From: Bradyrhizobium sp.
GTDB taxonomy: Bacteria > Pseudomonadota > Alphaproteobacteria > Rhizobiales > Xanthobacteraceae
Assembly (NCBI GenBank): GCA_028290165.1
Contig: JAQGKJ010000859.1
Coordinates: 1 to 5,742 of the forward strand
Direction of reading: 5' to 3'
DNA: 5,742 bases
Part shown: positions 450 through 5,742 of the stretch, piece after piece
Position numbering within the stretch: the first letter of the stretch is position 1
Layout of the letters: the number at the start of each line of letters is the position of its first letter
Program-made: the position numbers and the translations under genes
The notes under the pieces: generated by a model
What the model was told of the DNA's origin: nothing
What the model saw: the letters and a program-made list of their open reading frames with translations, nothing else
Databases searched by the model: none

Positions 450-1337
450 ATGTCGCAAAAAACGCTTTCCGAATTGAACGCGTGCAGCAAGGACGACTTC
501 GTCGCCGCGCTCGCCAATATCTTCGAATACTCGCCGTGGATCGCCGAAGCGGCGGGTTCGCATCGGCCGTTCGCCGGCGTCAGGCAATTGTTCGACGCGA
601 TGAAGGCGGGCGTTGACCGTGCGCCATCCGAACTGCGCCTTGCCCTGATCAAGGCGCATCCCGATCTCGCCAGCAAGACCCAGCGCGCCGCGGGCCTCAC
701 CGTAGAATCCAATGCGGAGCAGAACAGCGTCGGTCTCGACCGTCTGTCGGATGCCGAATACGAGGCCTTCGAGCGCGTCAACAACGCCTACCGCGCCAAG
801 TTTGGATTTCCCTACATCGTCTGCGTTCGTCGCCACACCAGGGATTCCATCCTGCGCGATTTCGAACGCCGCCTGCCCAACGATGCCAAAACCGAAACGC
901 AGAAGTCGGTCGAGGAAATCTGCCGGATCGCGGCCTTGCGCCTCGACCAGCTGGTGACCGCTGACGATCGGCTGCAGGTGCATGGGCGGCTGTCGACGCA
1001 TGTGCTCGATACCCACAGCGGCAAGCCGGCGGCGGGGATCGCGGTCGAGCTGGTCGAGCTGTCCGAGCTCGGCGCCAGCCGCGTCGTGACGCGGACGATC
1101 ACCAACGGCGACGGCCGGACCGATCAGCCCTTGATCGGTGGCCGGCCGGTGCCGATCGGCTGTTACGAGCTGACGTTCAGTGTCGGAAAATACTTTGCCG
1201 AGCGGCAGGTGCCGATGTCGGATCCGCCGTTCCTCGACCAGATTCCTTTGCGGTTTTCGGTGAGCGATCCCGAAAGCCATCTGCACGTGCCGCTCCTGGT
1301 CACGCCCTGGGGCTATACGACGTATCGGGGGAGTTGA
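450..1337 (+). CDS. uraD-uraH: Bifunctional OHCU decarboxylase / 5-hydroxyisourate hydrolase (fused UraD-UraH, allantoin synthase)
   Basis: This 295-residue protein joins two enzymes that finish urate breakdown to (S)-allantoin. Residues about 5-168 are a 2-oxo-4-hydroxy-4-carboxy-5-ureidoimidazoline (OHCU) decarboxylase: KAHPDLA carries the catalytic His70, NAEQNS carries Glu90, KFGFPYI is at 117-123, and Arg164 in RIAALRL matches the conserved active-site arginine. Residues about 176-295 are a transthyretin-like 5-hydroxyisourate hydrolase: LSTHVLDT (His184), TNGDGR (Arg223), HLHVPLL (His279) and the diagnostic C-terminal YRGS. The hydrolase opens 5-hydroxyisourate to OHCU and the decarboxylase then makes (S)-allantoin, so the fusion may hand on an unstable intermediate. 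Domain order is the same as in the plant allantoin synthase (TTL). No signal peptide or membrane segment is seen, so it should be cytoplasmic. It follows puuE by 8 bases, and the sigma-54 promoter for urate oxidase begins 4 bases after its stop codon. All key residues of both halves appear intact. Confidence 0.95.
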   Translation: MSQKTLSELNACSKDDFVAALANIFEYSPWIAEAAGSHRPFAGVRQLFDAMKAGVDRAPSELRLALIKAHPDLASKTQRAAGLTVESNAEQNSVGLDRLSDAEYEAFERVNNAYRAKFGFPYIVCVRRHTRDSILRDFERRLPNDAKTETQKSVEEICRIAALRLDQLVTADDRLQVHGRLSTHVLDTHSGKPAAGIAVELVELSELGASRVVTRTITNGDGRTDQPLIGGRPVPIGCYELTFSVGKYFAERQVPMSDPPFLDQIPLRFSVSDPESHLHVPLLVTPWGYTTYRGS

Positions 1338-1340
1338 AGT

Positions 1341-1357
1341 CTGGCACGAAGGTTGCT
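1341..1357 (+). promoter_or_regulatory. Sigma-54 (RpoN) -24/-12 promoter of urate oxidase
   Basis: CTGGCACGAAGGTTGCT matches every defined position of the sigma-54 consensus YTGGCACG-N4-TTGCW. The invariant GG (1343-1344) and GC (1355-1356) are exactly 10 bases apart. With the GC at -13/-12, transcription should start near 1368, leaving a leader of about 58 bases before the GTG start at 1426. It sits in the only non-coding gap of the window and points toward the urate oxidase gene. Sigma-54 promoters need an enhancer-binding activator; NtrC is the natural candidate for a nitrogen-scavenging gene, but I found no clear NtrC site. Any enhancer would fall inside the upstream coding sequence. Activity is inferred from sequence only. 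Confidence 0.82.
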
Positions 1358-1412
1358 CGTCAATGGCCCAGATCGGGACCAAGGAGAGCCTCGCGATTTC
1401 GCCGGTTGAACT

Positions 1413-1417
1413 GGAGG
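1413..1417 (+). promoter_or_regulatory. Ribosome binding site that sets the urate oxidase start at GTG 1426
   Basis: GGAGG ends 8 bases before the GTG at 1426-1428, which is close to ideal. The alternative ATG at 1363 has only a GAAGG (1348-1352) 10 bases upstream, and those bases form part of the sigma-54 promoter. That makes GGAGG/GTG the better initiation site. Confidence 0.7.
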
Positions 1418-1425
1418 TTTCACGC

Positions 1426-2265
1426 GTGCCACTGATAAAAAACAGATATGGCAAGGGCCGGGTCCGCGTGATGCGGATCCATCGCGACGGCGCCCGCCAC
1501 GAGGTCAGCCAGCTCAACGTCAAGGCGATGATCGAGGGTGATTTCGCCCGTGCCTATACGGGCGCCGACAACTCGACGTCGGTATCCACCGATACCATCA
1601 AGAACGTGGTCAATATCGTCGCCCGCGAGAATACCGGGCTCTGCACCGAGGAATTCTGTCTGGTGCTGGCGAAGAGATTCCTCGATCTCTATCCGCAGGT
1701 GAGCTCGGTTGCCATCACCGCGCACGAGACGAAATGGAGCCGCCTGAGCTTTGGCGGAAAACCGCACCCCCACAGCTTTGTGCTCGACAGCAACGGCAAG
1801 CCGACGGTGGAAGTAACCGCGACCCGCGGGGGATCGACGCTGATCTCGGGGATCGACGGTTTCACCTTCATGAAGTCGACCCAGTCCGGCTGGGAGAACT
1901 ACATCAGGGATTCCTACACCACGATCCCTCCAACCAACGACCGGATGTGCGCGACCTCCATGGTGGCAACCTGGAAATGGTCGGCGAAGCCGGAAAACTA
2001 TCCGGCCACCAATGCAAAGATCCTGGCAACGCTGCTGGAGGTGTTCGGCACCACCTACAGCGCGAGCGTGCAGGACAGCCTGTACCGGATGGGGGAGGCG
2101 GTACTTGCCGCGGTGCCGGAGATTTCCGAAATCAGCATGGCCTGCCCGAACATGCACTTCATCCTGATGAGCCTCTCGGCGTTCGGGCTCGATAACAATA
2201 ACGACGTCTTCCTGACGACCGACGAGCCGCACGGCCCGATCGAAAGCACGGTGGGGCGGGGCTGA
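1426..2265 (+). CDS. pucL: Urate oxidase (cofactor-independent uricase, T-fold)
   Basis: The enzyme oxidises urate with O2 to 5-hydroxyisourate and H2O2 without a metal or flavin. Counting from the GTG at 1426 the protein has 279 residues with two T-fold repeats. By alignment from memory with Aspergillus flavus uricase, all known active-site residues are present: Lys10 (RYGKGRVRV), Thr55 in STDTIKN (A. flavus Thr57), Phe118 in HPHSF (Phe159), Arg161 in IRDSYTTI (Arg176), Val215-Gln216 in SASVQ (Val227-Gln228), Asn242 and His244 in CPNMHF (Asn254, His256). The protein ends at TVGRG with no peroxisomal tail, as expected in a bacterium. An upstream in-frame ATG at 1363 would add 21 residues with no counterpart in the family and lies upstream of the predicted transcription start. 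Its product is the substrate of the preceding gene's hydrolase domain. The gene has its own sigma-54 promoter and may also be reached by read-through from puuE. Its TGA abuts the stop codon of the convergent gene. Confidence 0.95.
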   Translation: MPLIKNRYGKGRVRVMRIHRDGARHEVSQLNVKAMIEGDFARAYTGADNSTSVSTDTIKNVVNIVARENTGLCTEEFCLVLAKRFLDLYPQVSSVAITAHETKWSRLSFGGKPHPHSFVLDSNGKPTVEVTATRGGSTLISGIDGFTFMKSTQSGWENYIRDSYTTIPPTNDRMCATSMVATWKWSAKPENYPATNAKILATLLEVFGTTYSASVQDSLYRMGEAVLAAVPEISEISMACPNMHFILMSLSAFGLDNNNDVFLTTDEPHGPIESTVGRG

Positions 2266-4989
2266 TTACGCGCCAAACTTCTCATGCAACGCCGGCCACA
2301 GCCGGTCCGGCTTGAACGGCACGTCTGTGAAACGGATGCCGGTGGCGTTGGCAAGCGCGTTGCCAAGCGCGGCCGCCACCGGATTGTACGGGCTTTCGCT
2401 CATCGATTTGGCGCCCATCGGGCCGATCGCATCGGTGGTGTCCGCGAACAGCACCTCGGTGCGCGGGATGTCGGCGAACGACGGCAGGTGATAGTCGCGG
2501 AATTTCGGATTGACCACGCGACCGCTTTCGTCGATCACCATCTCCTCGTACAGCGTGGCGCCGAGCGACTGCGCCACGCCGCCCTCGACCTGTCCGCGGC
2601 ACTGCATGGGATTGGCGAGCCGGCCGGCATCGGCGGCCTGCACGCTCTTGAGGATCTTGATTTCGCCGGTGGCTTTGTTCACGGCGACGCGAAAGCCCTG
2701 GACGTTGAACGCGACCGATCGCGGCGTGCCCGCCGAGGTGCCCGTCGCGCCGAGAGCCTTGCCCTGCGCACGCGCGGCTTCCGCAAGCTCGGTGAACGAA
2801 ATCCGCTGCTTGCCGCAGACGACGGAATCGTTTTCGAGAACGCAGGTATCGGGATTCGTCCTGGTCATGGTGGACGTAAATACCTTAAGATCGTCGGCGA
2901 GATTTTCCGCCGCTGCTTGCGTTGCGAGTCCGGCGACAAAGGTGCCGGTCGAGCCATAGGCGCCGGTATCGTGGCCGCCATGCGCGGTGTCGGATTGCAG
3001 CAGCCGGATTTGATCGACGGTCGTCGCCAGCGCGGTCGCGGCGATCTGGCGATGCACCGTCGAGGTACCGTTGCCGAATTCCGCGGTGCCGACCGTCAAC
3101 TCGAACCCACCGTCCTCGCGCAGCGAAATCCTGGCGTCCGCGATATGCCCGTCCGGCGGCACGGTATCGATCATGGTCAGCGCAATGCCCTCGCCGATCA
3201 GCCAGTCGGTGGATAGTTCGATCTTTGGCACGTCGACCTGCATCGCGCGCTCGACCAGATCGAGGCACTGATCGAGCCCGTAGGAGCCATAGAGCACGTC
3301 GGTATGCCCTGAGCCCGGAGGCGAGAGCATGGGATCGCCGGGTTTGACGATATTGCGGCGGCGAATTTCGAACGGGCTGATGCCGAGACACTTGGCCAGT
3401 TCGTCGATCGCGGCTTCCACGGCGAGCAGCGTTTGCGGCAGGCCGTAACCCCGGAAGGCGCCTGCGGGCACCGTGTTGGTGTAGGCGACGACGGCGTCGA
3501 CCTTCTTGTTCGGGCAGTTATAGACGCCGAGCGATTCGCCGCAGGCGTGAAATAGCACCGGCGCGGCATGGTTGCCGTAAGCCCCGGTGTTCGAGAGCAC
3601 ATCGAGCTGCAGCGCCGTCAGCTTACCGTCCTTGTCGGCGCCCGCTTTCACGGCGATGCGCATCGGATGCCGCGTCGAGGTCGAGATGAATTGTTCTTCG
3701 CGCGTGAGTTCAAGTTTGACGGGCCGTCCGGTCTTGAGCGCGGCGAGCACAAGAATATCCTCGACGAACATCTCCTGCTTGCCGCCAAAACCGCCGCCAA
3801 CGCGCTCGCAGAACACCCGGACCTTGTCGGGGGCGAGATCGAAAATTTCTGCAAGCGCCCGCCGGGTCAGGAACGGCGTCTGCGTCGAGGAGCGCACGTT
3901 GAGAATGCCGCCAGCGTCGATCCAAGCGAGGCCGCCATGGGTTTCCAATGCGGCGTGCTGGACACGCTGGGTGGTGAACGTTCCCTCGTAAGTGACCGCG
4001 GCGCCGGCCAGCGCACTAGCGACATCGCCGTACTCGCCGTGGGCTTCCGCCACGATGTTGCGCCCCGCGTTGGTGACCCGCTGCGCCTGCGTCTTGTCCT
4101 CGTGAAGCAGCGGCGCGCCAGGTGTAATCGCCTGCGCCGGGTCCACCACCGCCGGTAGGATGTCGTAATCGACCTTGAGGCGGCGGCAGCCTTCTTCGGC
4201 GGCGGCTTCAGTCTCCGCGACCACGGCGGCCACCTTTTGCCCGATGAAGCGGACGACATCGTCGAGCACACGGGTGTCGTCCGGGTCCATCCAGGCTTTC
4301 TCGTGCCGTGCGGTCGAGAACAGACGGTCCGGCGCGTCCTCGAAGGTCAGGACCGCATGCACGCCGGGAACGGCGAGCGCCGCAGTCTTGTCGATCGACT
4401 TGATCCTGGCGTGCGGATGCGGCGAGCGCAGCATCTTGATGTGCGAGAGCCCTTCGATCGACGTATCGAACGTGTAGCGCGCCGCGCCCCGCACCACCTG
4501 CGGTCCGGCGGGCGCCGGCAGGCTGCGGCCGAAGGCGGTGCCGGCGGCGGCGTCTTCGATATTGGTTTTGCCGTCAAGCGCATCCTCGATCGCGCGGTAG
4601 CCGGTGCAGCGGCATAAGTTTCCCTTCAGCGACGCGCCGAGATCCTGCCGCTGCGCCTGGTTGAGGGATGCGCAGGTCATGATCATGCCCGCGGTACAGA
4701 AGCCGCATTGAAAAGCCTGCGCATCGAGGAACGCCTGCTGCATCGGATGCGTGCCGCCGTCGGGAGCGAGGCCTTCGATGGTGGTGACCGCGTGGCCGTC
4801 AGCGCGAAACGCCGGAATCAGGCAGCTGTGCACGGGCTCGCCGTCGATCAGCACGGTGCAGGCGCCGCAGTCGCCGGCGTCGCAGCCCTTCTTGACGCCG
4901 AAATGGCCAAGCTCGCGCAAGAACGTGCGCAGACATTGTCCGGCGCGCGGATTTTCCGAGAACTCCTTGCCGTTGATCTGAAAACTCAT
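2266..4989 (-). CDS. Molybdenum hydroxylase, fused [2Fe-2S]-molybdopterin subunit (xanthine dehydrogenase family, XdhD-like)
   Basis: The 907-residue protein starts at the ATG at 4989-4987, preceded by GAGG 4 bases upstream; an in-frame ATG at 5055 would add 22 residues that overlap the upstream gene and precede the FeS fold. Residues 1-75 are a plant-type ferredoxin domain with Cys36, 41, 44 and 56. Residues 76-145 are the second [2Fe-2S] domain with Cys95, Cys98, Cys126 and Cys128. From about 165 to the end come the xanthine dehydrogenase a/b hammerhead and molybdopterin-binding domains: STQ (Gln370), GGGFGGKQ (398-405), AFRGYG (511-516), EFGNG (637-641) and Glu865 in SMSESP, matching the catalytic Glu1261 of the bovine enzyme. 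It should hydroxylate an N-heterocycle with water and pass electrons to the FAD subunit encoded just upstream. The purine-binding Glu802 and Arg880 of bovine xanthine oxidase align with Gln405 and His481. Context favours hypoxanthine or xanthine as substrate, but another heteroaromatic is possible. No Tat signal is seen, so it is probably cytoplasmic. Confidence 0.88.
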   Translation of the reverse strand: MSFQINGKEFSENPRAGQCLRTFLRELGHFGVKKGCDAGDCGACTVLIDGEPVHSCLIPAFRADGHAVTTIEGLAPDGGTHPMQQAFLDAQAFQCGFCTAGMIMTCASLNQAQRQDLGASLKGNLCRCTGYRAIEDALDGKTNIEDAAAGTAFGRSLPAPAGPQVVRGAARYTFDTSIEGLSHIKMLRSPHPHARIKSIDKTAALAVPGVHAVLTFEDAPDRLFSTARHEKAWMDPDDTRVLDDVVRFIGQKVAAVVAETEAAAEEGCRRLKVDYDILPAVVDPAQAITPGAPLLHEDKTQAQRVTNAGRNIVAEAHGEYGDVASALAGAAVTYEGTFTTQRVQHAALETHGGLAWIDAGGILNVRSSTQTPFLTRRALAEIFDLAPDKVRVFCERVGGGFGGKQEMFVEDILVLAALKTGRPVKLELTREEQFISTSTRHPMRIAVKAGADKDGKLTALQLDVLSNTGAYGNHAAPVLFHACGESLGVYNCPNKKVDAVVAYTNTVPAGAFRGYGLPQTLLAVEAAIDELAKCLGISPFEIRRRNIVKPGDPMLSPPGSGHTDVLYGSYGLDQCLDLVERAMQVDVPKIELSTDWLIGEGIALTMIDTVPPDGHIADARISLREDGGFELTVGTAEFGNGTSTVHRQIAATALATTVDQIRLLQSDTAHGGHDTGAYGSTGTFVAGLATQAAAENLADDLKVFTSTMTRTNPDTCVLENDSVVCGKQRISFTELAEAARAQGKALGATGTSAGTPRSVAFNVQGFRVAVNKATGEIKILKSVQAADAGRLANPMQCRGQVEGGVAQSLGATLYEEMVIDESGRVVNPKFRDYHLPSFADIPRTEVLFADTTDAIGPMGAKSMSESPYNPVAAALGNALANATGIRFTDVPFKPDRLWPALHEKFGA
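4986..4989 (-). other. ATGA start/stop overlap coupling the two hydroxylase genes
   Basis: On the minus strand ATG (4989-4987) of the FeS-Mo gene overlaps TGA (4988-4986) of the FAD-subunit gene. Such an overlap usually means translational coupling, which suits two subunits of one complex. Confidence 0.85.
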
Positions 4990-5742
4990 CGCGCCTCGCC
5001 CTGCAGTTCGGCGCGGATCTGTTCGGCAAGGCGCAAGGTCATGTGCTTGCGCCATGCCGGCTTGCCGTGAACATCGTCATGATAGAGCGCGTCGGGAATG
5101 TGGTGAAGCAGCGCCTCGCGCAGTTCGCTTGCTTGCGGGATCAAGGCAAAGGACAATTGAACGGGCCGCACCGTCGATGCCGTCACCGCGAGTGCGAAGC
5201 GGCCCTCGCCACCGAGGCTGCCGATCAACAGCGCCGCCGACCGGCCGACCGGGGTCAACGAAATCTTGCGAAACGCCGACCGCCGCTTCAGCGTGGCAAT
5301 CGGAATGTCGATCTGCCGCAACAGGTCGCCCGGCGACAATACGTTGCGCTGGTCGCCGATGACGAAGTCGGCGACACCAATTTTCTGCTGGCTGCCGTCG
5401 GCTTTCCAGATCGTGCAGACGCCGTCGAGCGCCGATGTCAACGAGATCATCGGGCCGGCCGGCAACGACATGCAGAGATTGCCGCCGACGGTTGCGGTCT
5501 TCCAAATCTTGAAGGAGGCGAGATACGCTCGGCAGCATTGGTCGATCAGGGGTGCGGCGAGCCAATCCGGCGGGCACGCCAGGGCGTCGAGTTGCGCCAC
5601 CGTGCAGGTCGCCGCGATAGAAAGCCCGGCGTCGCCGATCGTCAGCGCCGGCCATTTGAGATCGGTGAGATCGATCAGCCGCGTCAGATGAACCTGAGGT
5701 TCCGAGAACAGCCAGGTGCCGCCCGCGAGCCAAGCATCGCCT
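4986..5742 (-). CDS. FAD-binding subunit of molybdenum hydroxylase (CoxM/XdhA-FAD family), 5' end outside window
   Basis: The minus-strand frame is open from the right edge to the TGA at 4988-4986, giving 251 visible residues; about 20-35 N-terminal residues are probably missing, as the family is about 260-290 long. The first FAD-binding motif AGGTWLFSEPQ is at visible residues 6-16, close to the N-terminus as usual. The second, TATVGGNLC, is at 82-90. The C-terminal CO-dehydrogenase flavoprotein-like domain spans about 155-250 (FRKISLTPVGRSAA at 157-170). The subunit takes electrons from the [2Fe-2S] clusters of its partner and passes them to NAD+ or another acceptor. It lacks any FeS domain, so it is not a standard XdhA; paired with the downstream FeS-Mo fusion it corresponds to the E. 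coli YgfM/XdhD pair. The promoter and any other subunit or maturation gene, such as an XdhC-like factor, would lie beyond the right edge. Confidence 0.88.
   Translation of the reverse strand, partial: GDAWLAGGTWLFSEPQVHLTRLIDLTDLKWPALTIGDAGLSIAATCTVAQLDALACPPDWLAAPLIDQCCRAYLASFKIWKTATVGGNLCMSLPAGPMISLTSALDGVCTIWKADGSQQKIGVADFVIGDQRNVLSPGDLLRQIDIPIATLKRRSAFRKISLTPVGRSAALLIGSLGGEGRFALAVTASTVRPVQLSFALIPQASELREALLHHIPDALYHDDVHGKPAWRKHMTLRLAEQIRAELQGEAR

What the first reader, a model, noticed from the sequence alone, without database searches (positions are those of the whole stretch)
1341..1357. Full-consensus sigma-54 promoter in front of urate oxidase
CTGGCACG-AAGG-TTGCT fits the RpoN consensus at all defined bases, with GG-N10-GC spacing, in the correct orientation and in the only intergenic gap of the window. 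A chance full match in exactly this place is unlikely. It implies that urate oxidation can be switched on separately from the upstream puuE/uraD-uraH genes through an enhancer-binding activator, probably linked to nitrogen limitation. The gene order then makes the first urate-degrading step the most tightly nitrogen-controlled one.
Basis: partly seen in the sequence, partly recalled or inferred. Interest (0 to 1): 0.72.

Follow-up and report, generated by a model that had tools for sequence, protein, structure and literature searches.

The report
Conserved sigma-54 promoter for urate oxidase
A soil bacterium related to Bradyrhizobium has a perfect switch sequence of the nitrogen-stress type in front of the gene that breaks down uric acid; close relatives keep the same switch, and sister purine-degradation genes carry similar ones, so it looks like part of a shared nitrogen-scavenging programme.

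Summary
TGGCACG-AAGG-TTGCT (1342-1357, + strand) fits the sigma-54 consensus at 12 of 12 positions; 0.0019 such matches are expected in the window by chance. It is conserved: 48 of 48 Bradyrhizobium/Tardiphaga-type uricase loci and 27 of 27 uricase-bearing genomes among 117 of the genus carry the core 71-97 nt before the uricase start, while flanks have diverged. The true uricase start is GTG1426, not ATG1363. In the wider family 34 of 46 uricases have a sigma-54-like site: 18 of this type, 16 of two other types (shuffles mean 1.4).

Sigma-54 control is well supported; NtrC is the likeliest, unproven, activator. That urate oxidation is switched separately, or is the most tightly controlled step, is not supported: in relatives, DUF3830-puuE-uraDH, 8-oxoguanine deaminase and xdhF carry sigma-54-like sites too (13/29, 26/30, 31/32), so the cluster looks co-regulated. 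Sigma-54/NtrC control of urate oxidase is already reported in Burkholderia (PMC5491218, passages). New member of a known kind.

The parts
1342..1357 (+). sigma-54 (RpoN) core promoter TGGCACG-AAGG-TTGCT; GG 1343-1344 (-24), GC 1355-1356 (-12); predicted +1 near 1368
   Evidence: 12/12 to consensus; conserved in 48/48 loci and 27/27 genomes; conservation island
1368..1425 (+). predicted 5' leader of the uricase mRNA (about 58 nt) with Shine-Dalgarno GGAGG 1413-1417
   Evidence: spacing from -12; SD-like sequence in 49/49 loci; no consensus RNA fold on 20 sequences
1426..2265 (+). urate oxidase (uricase), 279 aa, start GTG1426; the ATG1363 frame is an over-extension
   Evidence: PF01014, TIGR03383 from residue 25 of the long frame, relatives' starts
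450..1337 (+). fused OHCU decarboxylase / 5-hydroxyisourate hydrolase (uraD-uraH), directly upstream; its 3' end covers the zone 80-150 bp before the core (about 1192-1262) where an activator site would be expected (inferred; distance from a passage of PMC13207237)
   Evidence: PF09349 + PF00576
1..441 (+). allantoinase PuuE, C-terminal part (5' end outside the window)
   Evidence: TIGR03212, below its cut-off, as only a part is present
2266..4989 (-). xanthine dehydrogenase-type protein, Fe-S and Mo subunits in one frame, convergent with uricase
   Evidence: PF02738, PF20256, PF01315, PF01799, PF00111
4986..5741 (-). xanthine dehydrogenase-type FAD subunit (5' end outside the window; relatives have a sigma-54-like site there)
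   Evidence: PF00941; relatives' site

Best explanation
The sequence at 1342-1357 is a working sigma-54 promoter for urate oxidase. RpoN-RNA polymerase sits closed on the -24/-12 elements; an enhancer-binding ATPase opens it under nitrogen limitation, starting a transcript near 1368 with a leader of about 58 nt before GTG1426. NtrC is the likeliest activator. The promoter is one of several sigma-54-like promoters that together serve the purine-degradation cluster (xanthine to urate to allantoin to allantoate), so the pathway is most likely induced as a unit. Shown by sequence: the site, its conservation, the corrected start, the sister sites in relatives. Inferred: promoter activity, the nitrogen signal, NtrC, and that the sister sites are also present in the window's own organism.
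For: Exact consensus match, expected 0.0019 per window. Core in 48/48 close loci and 27/27 uricase genomes of 117. Mean pairwise identity is 92% in the core, 30% or less at -60 to -20 and +25 to +45 from the T of TGG (ungapped comparison), and 60% at fourfold sites of uricase; in the 78 pairs with under 50% fourfold identity the core is still 92%. The site is kept whether an NCS2 permease gene or uraDH lies upstream; the permease label changes 5 times on a quick tree. The wider family has GG-N10-GC sites at 34/46 uricases in three versions; composition shuffles mean 1.4, maximum 5 in 200 rounds. The pattern TGGCAYRNNNNTTGCW occurs 162 times against 13 for the backward control in 6 relatives. 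Sister units 13/29, 26/30, 31/32 against internal genes puuE 0/30 and xdhLS 1/35. Enhancer-binding proteins with GAFTGA in G001, the closest relative's genome: NtrC, FlbD and one 501-aa orphan; NtrX lacks it. In Burkholderia cenocepacia urate oxidase mRNA is lower in an ntrC mutant (-3.4) and its cluster is listed among common sigma-54/NtrC targets (PMC5491218, passages).
Against: No conserved upstream activator sequence was found at uricase or in the gap between xdhF and 8-oxoguanine deaminase. The enteric-type NtrC box is not enriched (best-score mean 7.80 against 7.93 shuffled at uricase; 7.86 against 7.83 at 22 other G001 sites). The spacer AA[CG]G and, in most loci, the flanks CTTG[CA]C and TAT are conserved too, which sigma-54 alone does not require. 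Relative L158 lost the -24 GG, and 12 of 46 family uricases, L158 among them, have no such site. A looser form of the core, YGGCAYRANSRTTGCT, occurs in 91 of 117 genus genomes though only 27 have uricase, so the string itself is not uricase-specific. The xdhF sites lie mostly 33 nt before the start used, so that start is probably too early or the site is not its promoter. Non-core long ORFs of the same loci also have such a site in 26 of 174 cases. No transcript data exist here for this organism. The B. cenocepacia ntrC mutant grew better, not worse, on uric acid.
Confidence: 0.78

Rival explanations
1. Nested dual promoter: in most relatives a sigma-70-type promoter (CTTG[CA]C, 18-19 nt, C-N2-TAT) encloses the sigma-54 core, giving basal plus nitrogen-induced uricase; the window and its nearest relative L052 (and separately L007 and five Tardiphaga-type loci) lack the sigma-70 parts and would depend on sigma-54 alone.
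For: CTTG[CA]C in 35/49 and TAT in 31/49 loci; window, L052, L007, L033, L034, L036, L038 and L041 lack both. Best score to CTTGAC/CTATAT (spacing 16-19 allowed) averages 8.7 of 12 at 49 uricase promoters against 6.3 at 46 other sigma-54-like sites of related genomes. In L043, L045 and L046 the -35-like box is exactly CTTGAC while -24 is CGG; L158 keeps CTTGAC and CGAAAT but has lost -24.
Against: The spacing of 18-19 is 1-2 nt longer than the rhizobial optimum (consensus recalled, from no call). AT-rich bases after -12 may simply serve sigma-54 melting. In window 1200-2400 no sigma-70-like site was found.
Confidence: 0.25
2. The conserved block is an operator for a urate- or purine-responsive DNA-binding protein, and its sigma-54 look is coincidental.
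For: The spacer is conserved within the Bradyrhizobium/Tardiphaga group (84% identity), unlike 46 other sigma-54-like sites; xdhF carries a palindrome TCTTGCAAGA over its -12 in the printed loci L052, L044, L016 and L002.
Against: The family-wide versions share only GG-N10-GC and neighbouring consensus bases, not the spacer; the 17-bp core is not palindromic; in the CTTGAC loci the possible TTGCC/GGCA dyad is broken without compensation.
Confidence: 0.08
3. The activator is not NtrC but the 501-aa orphan response regulator (or FlbD).
For: Both carry GAFTGA in G001, and orthologues of both are found in G002 and G006; no NtrC box was found.
Against: FlbD (NF050807) lies beside what look, by eye, like fliF/fliG-type genes; the genes behind the sites look like nitrogen scavenging; NtrC control of urate oxidase is reported elsewhere.
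Confidence: 0.2
4. Chance match or relic without function.
For: None beyond the general rule that consensus matches are not proof.
Against: Expected 0.0019 per window; 48/48 and 27/27 conservation with diverged flanks.
Confidence: 0.02

Closest known systems
Sigma-54/NtrC-dependent urate oxidase and xanthine dehydrogenase genes of Burkholderia cenocepacia H111 (PMC5491218, passages seen)
   Same: Urate oxidase and xanthine dehydrogenase are lowered in an ntrC mutant and listed among common sigma-54/NtrC targets
   Different: Betaproteobacterium, shown by RNA-seq; here alphaproteobacteria, shown by sequence only, with site-level conservation
RpoN regulon of Bradyrhizobium sp. DOA9 (PMC13207237, abstract and passages seen)
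   Same: A Bradyrhizobium, with the same -24/-12 consensus; its site table holds a cytosine/purine/uracil/thiamine/allantoin-permease-family gene and an XdhC/CoxF maturation factor
   Different: The main text has no occurrence of uricase, urate or uric; whether DOA9 has this cluster was not checked
Rhizobial RpoN promoters, consensus TGGCACG-N4-TTGCW (PMC4999443, passages seen)
   Same: 12 of 12 positions
   Different: That paper treats NifA-linked promoters with TGT-N10-ACA sites; that site is absent within 400 nt upstream in the window and present in 4 of 49 loci here

Membership tests
sigma-54 (RpoN) promoter | -24 GG and -12 GC ten bases apart within TGGCACG-N4-TTGCW | tested here: met
   exact at 1342-1357
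sigma-54 (RpoN) promoter | Core conserved in orthologous promoters while flanks diverge | tested here: met
   48/48 and 27/27; 92% core identity against 30% or less at -60 to -20 and +25 to +45
sigma-54 (RpoN) promoter | Start site about 12 nt after -12, upstream of a usable ribosome-binding site and start | tested here: inconclusive
   Geometry fits: predicted +1 at 1368, SD 1413-1417, GTG1426; leader 45-71 nt in 49 loci; the start site itself is not mapped
sigma-54 (RpoN) promoter | Upstream activator sequence for an enhancer-binding protein | tested here: inconclusive
   No conserved upstream island; in the window the zone lies in uraH coding sequence
sigma-54 (RpoN) promoter | Genome encodes GAFTGA-type enhancer-binding proteins | tested here: met
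   Met in G001, the genome of the nearest relative L052; GAFTGA was not checked in other genomes, and the window's own genome is not held
sigma-54 (RpoN) promoter | Transcription lost in an rpoN mutant | not testable with these tools
   needs an experiment
NtrC regulon | NtrC box upstream (enteric form TGCACC-N5-GGTGCA, recalled) | tested here: not met
   No enrichment at 49 uricase promoters or 22 other G001 sites; the box of Bradyrhizobium NtrC is not known to me, so only the enteric form is excluded
NtrC regulon | Expression depends on ntrC and nitrogen limitation | not testable with these tools
   needs an experiment
NifA target | TGT-N10-ACA upstream | tested here: not met
   None in the window within 400 nt upstream; 4 of 49 loci have one

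The most novel reading that the evidence does not exclude
The purine-degradation cluster of these bacteria is a sigma-54 regulon promoter by promoter, working without conserved nearby enhancers. Its uricase promoter is a sigma-54 core nested in the spacer of a sigma-70-type promoter in most species, so that lineages have shifted between basal-plus-induced and strictly nitrogen-induced uricase by losing one half or the other: the window and L052 have lost the sigma-70 half, and L158 the sigma-54 half.
Probability: 0.2. Interest if true: 0.55.

Novelty: new member of a known kind. Interest (0 to 1): 0.4.

Why it matters
It gives a testable map of how Bradyrhizobium-type soil bacteria and rhizobia would turn on purine nitrogen scavenging, and a natural series for studying how an enhancer-dependent promoter is kept or lost. 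For ureide-transporting legumes, whose nodules form ureides from purines (abstract start of PMC9464200 in the listing), bacterial control of urate oxidation could bear on nitrogen loss; that link is inference. The mechanism itself is familiar.

Tried and rejected
Tried and rejected: (1) A structured 5' leader: inverted repeats looked covarying by eye, but RNAalifold gave 0 pairs on 20 of the 49 leaders. Of 8 leaders folded singly, 6 were matched or beaten by 62-182 of 200 shuffles; L030 (8 of 200) and L034 (22 of 200) fold better than most shuffles. Rfam found nothing in the window. (2) An NtrC box and a NifA site. (3) An activator gene beside uricase: none recognised by eye among the ORF starts of L052, L044 and L021; in G001, G002, G003, G005 and G006 the strong PF00158 hits lie on other contigs than uricase. 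(4) A sigma-70 site or a terminator in window 1200-2400: 0 found. (5) TGGCACG-N4-TTGTA as a general promoter class: 6 matches against 6 control in 6 genomes, so not enriched, although conserved at the permease. (6) A plasmid match of 1300-1450: none. (7) 'Own genome' searches: no genome is held.

Weak points of my counts: the anchor pattern was written after looking, but all 48 close loci were kept and none was dropped. Related sequences are not independent, and several genomes are the same as, or very close to, loci. One of the 27 genus hits (L145) is a partial uricase (query 1-53). Shuffles keep base composition only. One search left out hits under 50% identity, hits starting after query residue 25, and starts with under 200 nt upstream. 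The downstream frames were picked by script; several of those G001 sites lie inside longer same-strand or opposite-strand ORFs. Tree held a misread row (L158) and was replaced, a quick tree with 12 of 51 inner branches under 80% support. My first notebook entry and my notes give 152 genome-wide matches where the sum is 162.

Full report
What is there. The window holds, left to right, the end of puuE (allantoinase, + strand, stop 441), a fused uraD-uraH gene (450-1337), urate oxidase (+), and a convergent xanthine dehydrogenase-type pair (Fe-S/Mo subunits in one frame 2266-4989, FAD subunit 4986-5741, both -). Uricase and the xdh frame end back to back at 2265/2266. The only sizeable gap is the one before uricase.

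The site. TGGCACG-AAGG-TTGCT at 1342-1357 matches the sigma-54 consensus at all 12 defined positions, with GG-N10-GC spacing and in the right orientation. It is the only exact match in the window; a Markov model expects 0.0019 in the window and 1.1e-5 on the + strand of the gap.

Uricase start. The long frame begins at ATG1363, but the uricase model begins at residue 25. The position of GTG1426 has an SD-like sequence before it in 49 of 49 loci, and 18 of 49 have an in-frame stop and no other start codon between the predicted +1 and that start. The predicted +1 (about 1368) lies downstream of ATG1363, so a sigma-54 transcript could only use a later start such as GTG1426. The gap is therefore 1338-1425.

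Conservation. One scan of genome contigs gave 55 uricase loci. All 48 from Bradyrhizobium, Tardiphaga and close Bradyrhizobiaceae or loosely named bins carry the core; the 7 remote ones (L047-L051, L053, L054) do not carry this form. In a second collection, 27 of 117 genomes of the genus have uricase (one partial) and 27 of 27 have the core 71-97 nt before its start. A looser form of the string occurs in 91 of the 117 genomes, so it is the position, not the string alone, that is telling. Column information is high from about -9 to +24 from the T of TGG and low outside, apart from a G-rich spot at +33. Core identity is 92% over 1176 pairs; the stretches -60 to -40, -40 to -20, -20 to -10 and +25 to +45, compared without gaps, give 26, 28, 32 and 30%; the two conserved flanks give 59% (-9 to -3) and 62% (+19 to +22); fourfold sites of uricase give 60%.

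Wider family. Of 248 family genomes 47 have uricase; 46 have upstream sequence (one runs off its contig). 34 of 46 have a GG-N10-GC site scoring at least 9 of 12 within 130 nt: 18 of the window's type, 14 TGGCAYYGSWTTCGCA, 2 CGGCATGYGCATTGCT; the reverse strand gives 2, and composition shuffles a mean of 1.4 and a maximum of 5 in 200 rounds. The spacers differ between types, which favours the -24/-12 logic over a fixed operator. Two Ancylobacter loci of the first scan (L048, L049), counted there as lacking the site, show the second type in their upstream sequence. One close relative, L158, has lost the -24 GG; 11 further family uricases have no such site.

The cluster. In 25 of 49 loci a divergent NCS2 permease gene (L052 copy: TIGR03173) lies upstream of uricase. 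It has a conserved TGGCACG-N4-TTGTA in 24 of 25 loci, and one base shorter in L018. The -12 GT is unusual, and the pattern is not enriched genome-wide. The window lacks this gene here, and uraDH abuts the promoter. Other leading genes carry sigma-54-like sites as well: DUF3830 of the DUF3830-puuE-uraDH unit 13 of 29 (1.5 expected), 8-oxoguanine deaminase 26 of 30 (1.0), xdhF 31 of 32 (1.5); internal genes do not (puuE 0 of 30, xdhLS 1 of 35). Most xdhF sites lie 33 nt before the start used, which is probably too early; a second in-frame ATG (MDLN) follows. uraDH scores in 7 of 45, of which four (L022, L024, L039, L055) have a TGGAA-type site 93-114 nt upstream. Non-core long ORFs of the same loci score in 26 of 174. 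In the alignment of the xdhF/8-oxoguanine deaminase gap from 31 loci the two promoter blocks stand out, together with a block GCTTTCAAC in the xdhF leader or 5' coding part. The name DUF3830 is recalled from sequence resemblance; no call named it.

Activator. G001, the genome of L052 (the nearest relative, 88-89% uricase identity), has four strong enhancer-binding proteins: NtrC, NtrX, FlbD and a 501-aa orphan; NtrX lacks GAFTGA. Of 22 further pattern matches in G001, 20 downstream frames were tested (L096 and L103 were left out): 8 ABC-transporter parts, 4 amidase, amidohydrolase or isochorismatase-family enzymes, 8 other or unknown. That points to nitrogen scavenging and hence NtrC, but no NtrC box of the enteric form was found.

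A second layer. Around the core, CTTG[CA]C (35 of 49) and TAT (31 of 49) are conserved; eight rows, among them the window and L052, lack both. They could be a sigma-70-type promoter enclosing the core, which would give most relatives basal uricase expression; this is the most novel reading and is unproven.

Literature. In Burkholderia cenocepacia urate oxidase and xanthine dehydrogenase are among common sigma-54/NtrC targets (PMC5491218, passages), although that ntrC mutant grew better on uric acid. In Pseudomonas stutzeri an ntrC mutant used uric acid poorly (PMC8443478, passage). Searches for sigma-54 + uricase + Bradyrhizobium (0 papers), RpoN + Bradyrhizobium + urate and others showed, in the titles and abstract starts listed, no paper on this promoter; the library holds open papers only, and longer result sets were listed only in part.

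Verdict. A real, strongly conserved sigma-54 promoter of a known kind.

Noticed in passing
L001-L008, L010, L011, L013, L015, L017-L020, L032-L034, L036, L038, L041, L042, L045, L052, upstream of uricase, - strand: Divergent NCS2 (PbuX-type) permease with a strictly conserved TGGCACG-N4-TTGTA (GT instead of GC at -12; one base shorter in L018). Conserved in place but not enriched genome-wide.
   Followed up: partly
L158 upstream of uricase: A natural loss of the -24 GG with CTTGAC and TTGCTCGAAAT kept, next to relatives with CGGCACG.
   Followed up: partly
L052 gap between xdhF and 8-oxoguanine deaminase (about 14487-14656): Tandem copies of GGAATTGCAAGGCT beside the 8-oxoguanine deaminase promoter; xdhF has a palindrome TCTTGCAAGA over its -12 in several printed loci.
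   Followed up: no
Genus scan, 117 genomes: This uricase was found in only 27 of 117 genomes of the genus, so other species may use another urate-oxidising enzyme or none.
   Followed up: no
window 2263-2268: Uricase and the convergent xdh frame end back to back with no gap, and no terminator-like site was found in 1200-2400.
   Followed up: no
window 2266-4989: Xanthine dehydrogenase-type Fe-S and Mo-binding subunits are one 907-aa frame, with a separate FAD subunit; most loci that hold xdh match it in one continuous stretch.
   Followed up: no
L048, L049, L171, L172, L174-L176, L178, L180-L183, L186-L189: A second sigma-54-like uricase promoter type, TGGCAYYGSWTTCGCA, with its own conserved spacer; in L174 the -24 is half of a perfect inverted repeat GGTGCCA-GAC-TGGCACC.
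   Followed up: partly
L108:3342-4847: A 501-aa orphan enhancer-binding response regulator with GAFTGA, with orthologues in two further genomes, without a role known to me.
   Followed up: no
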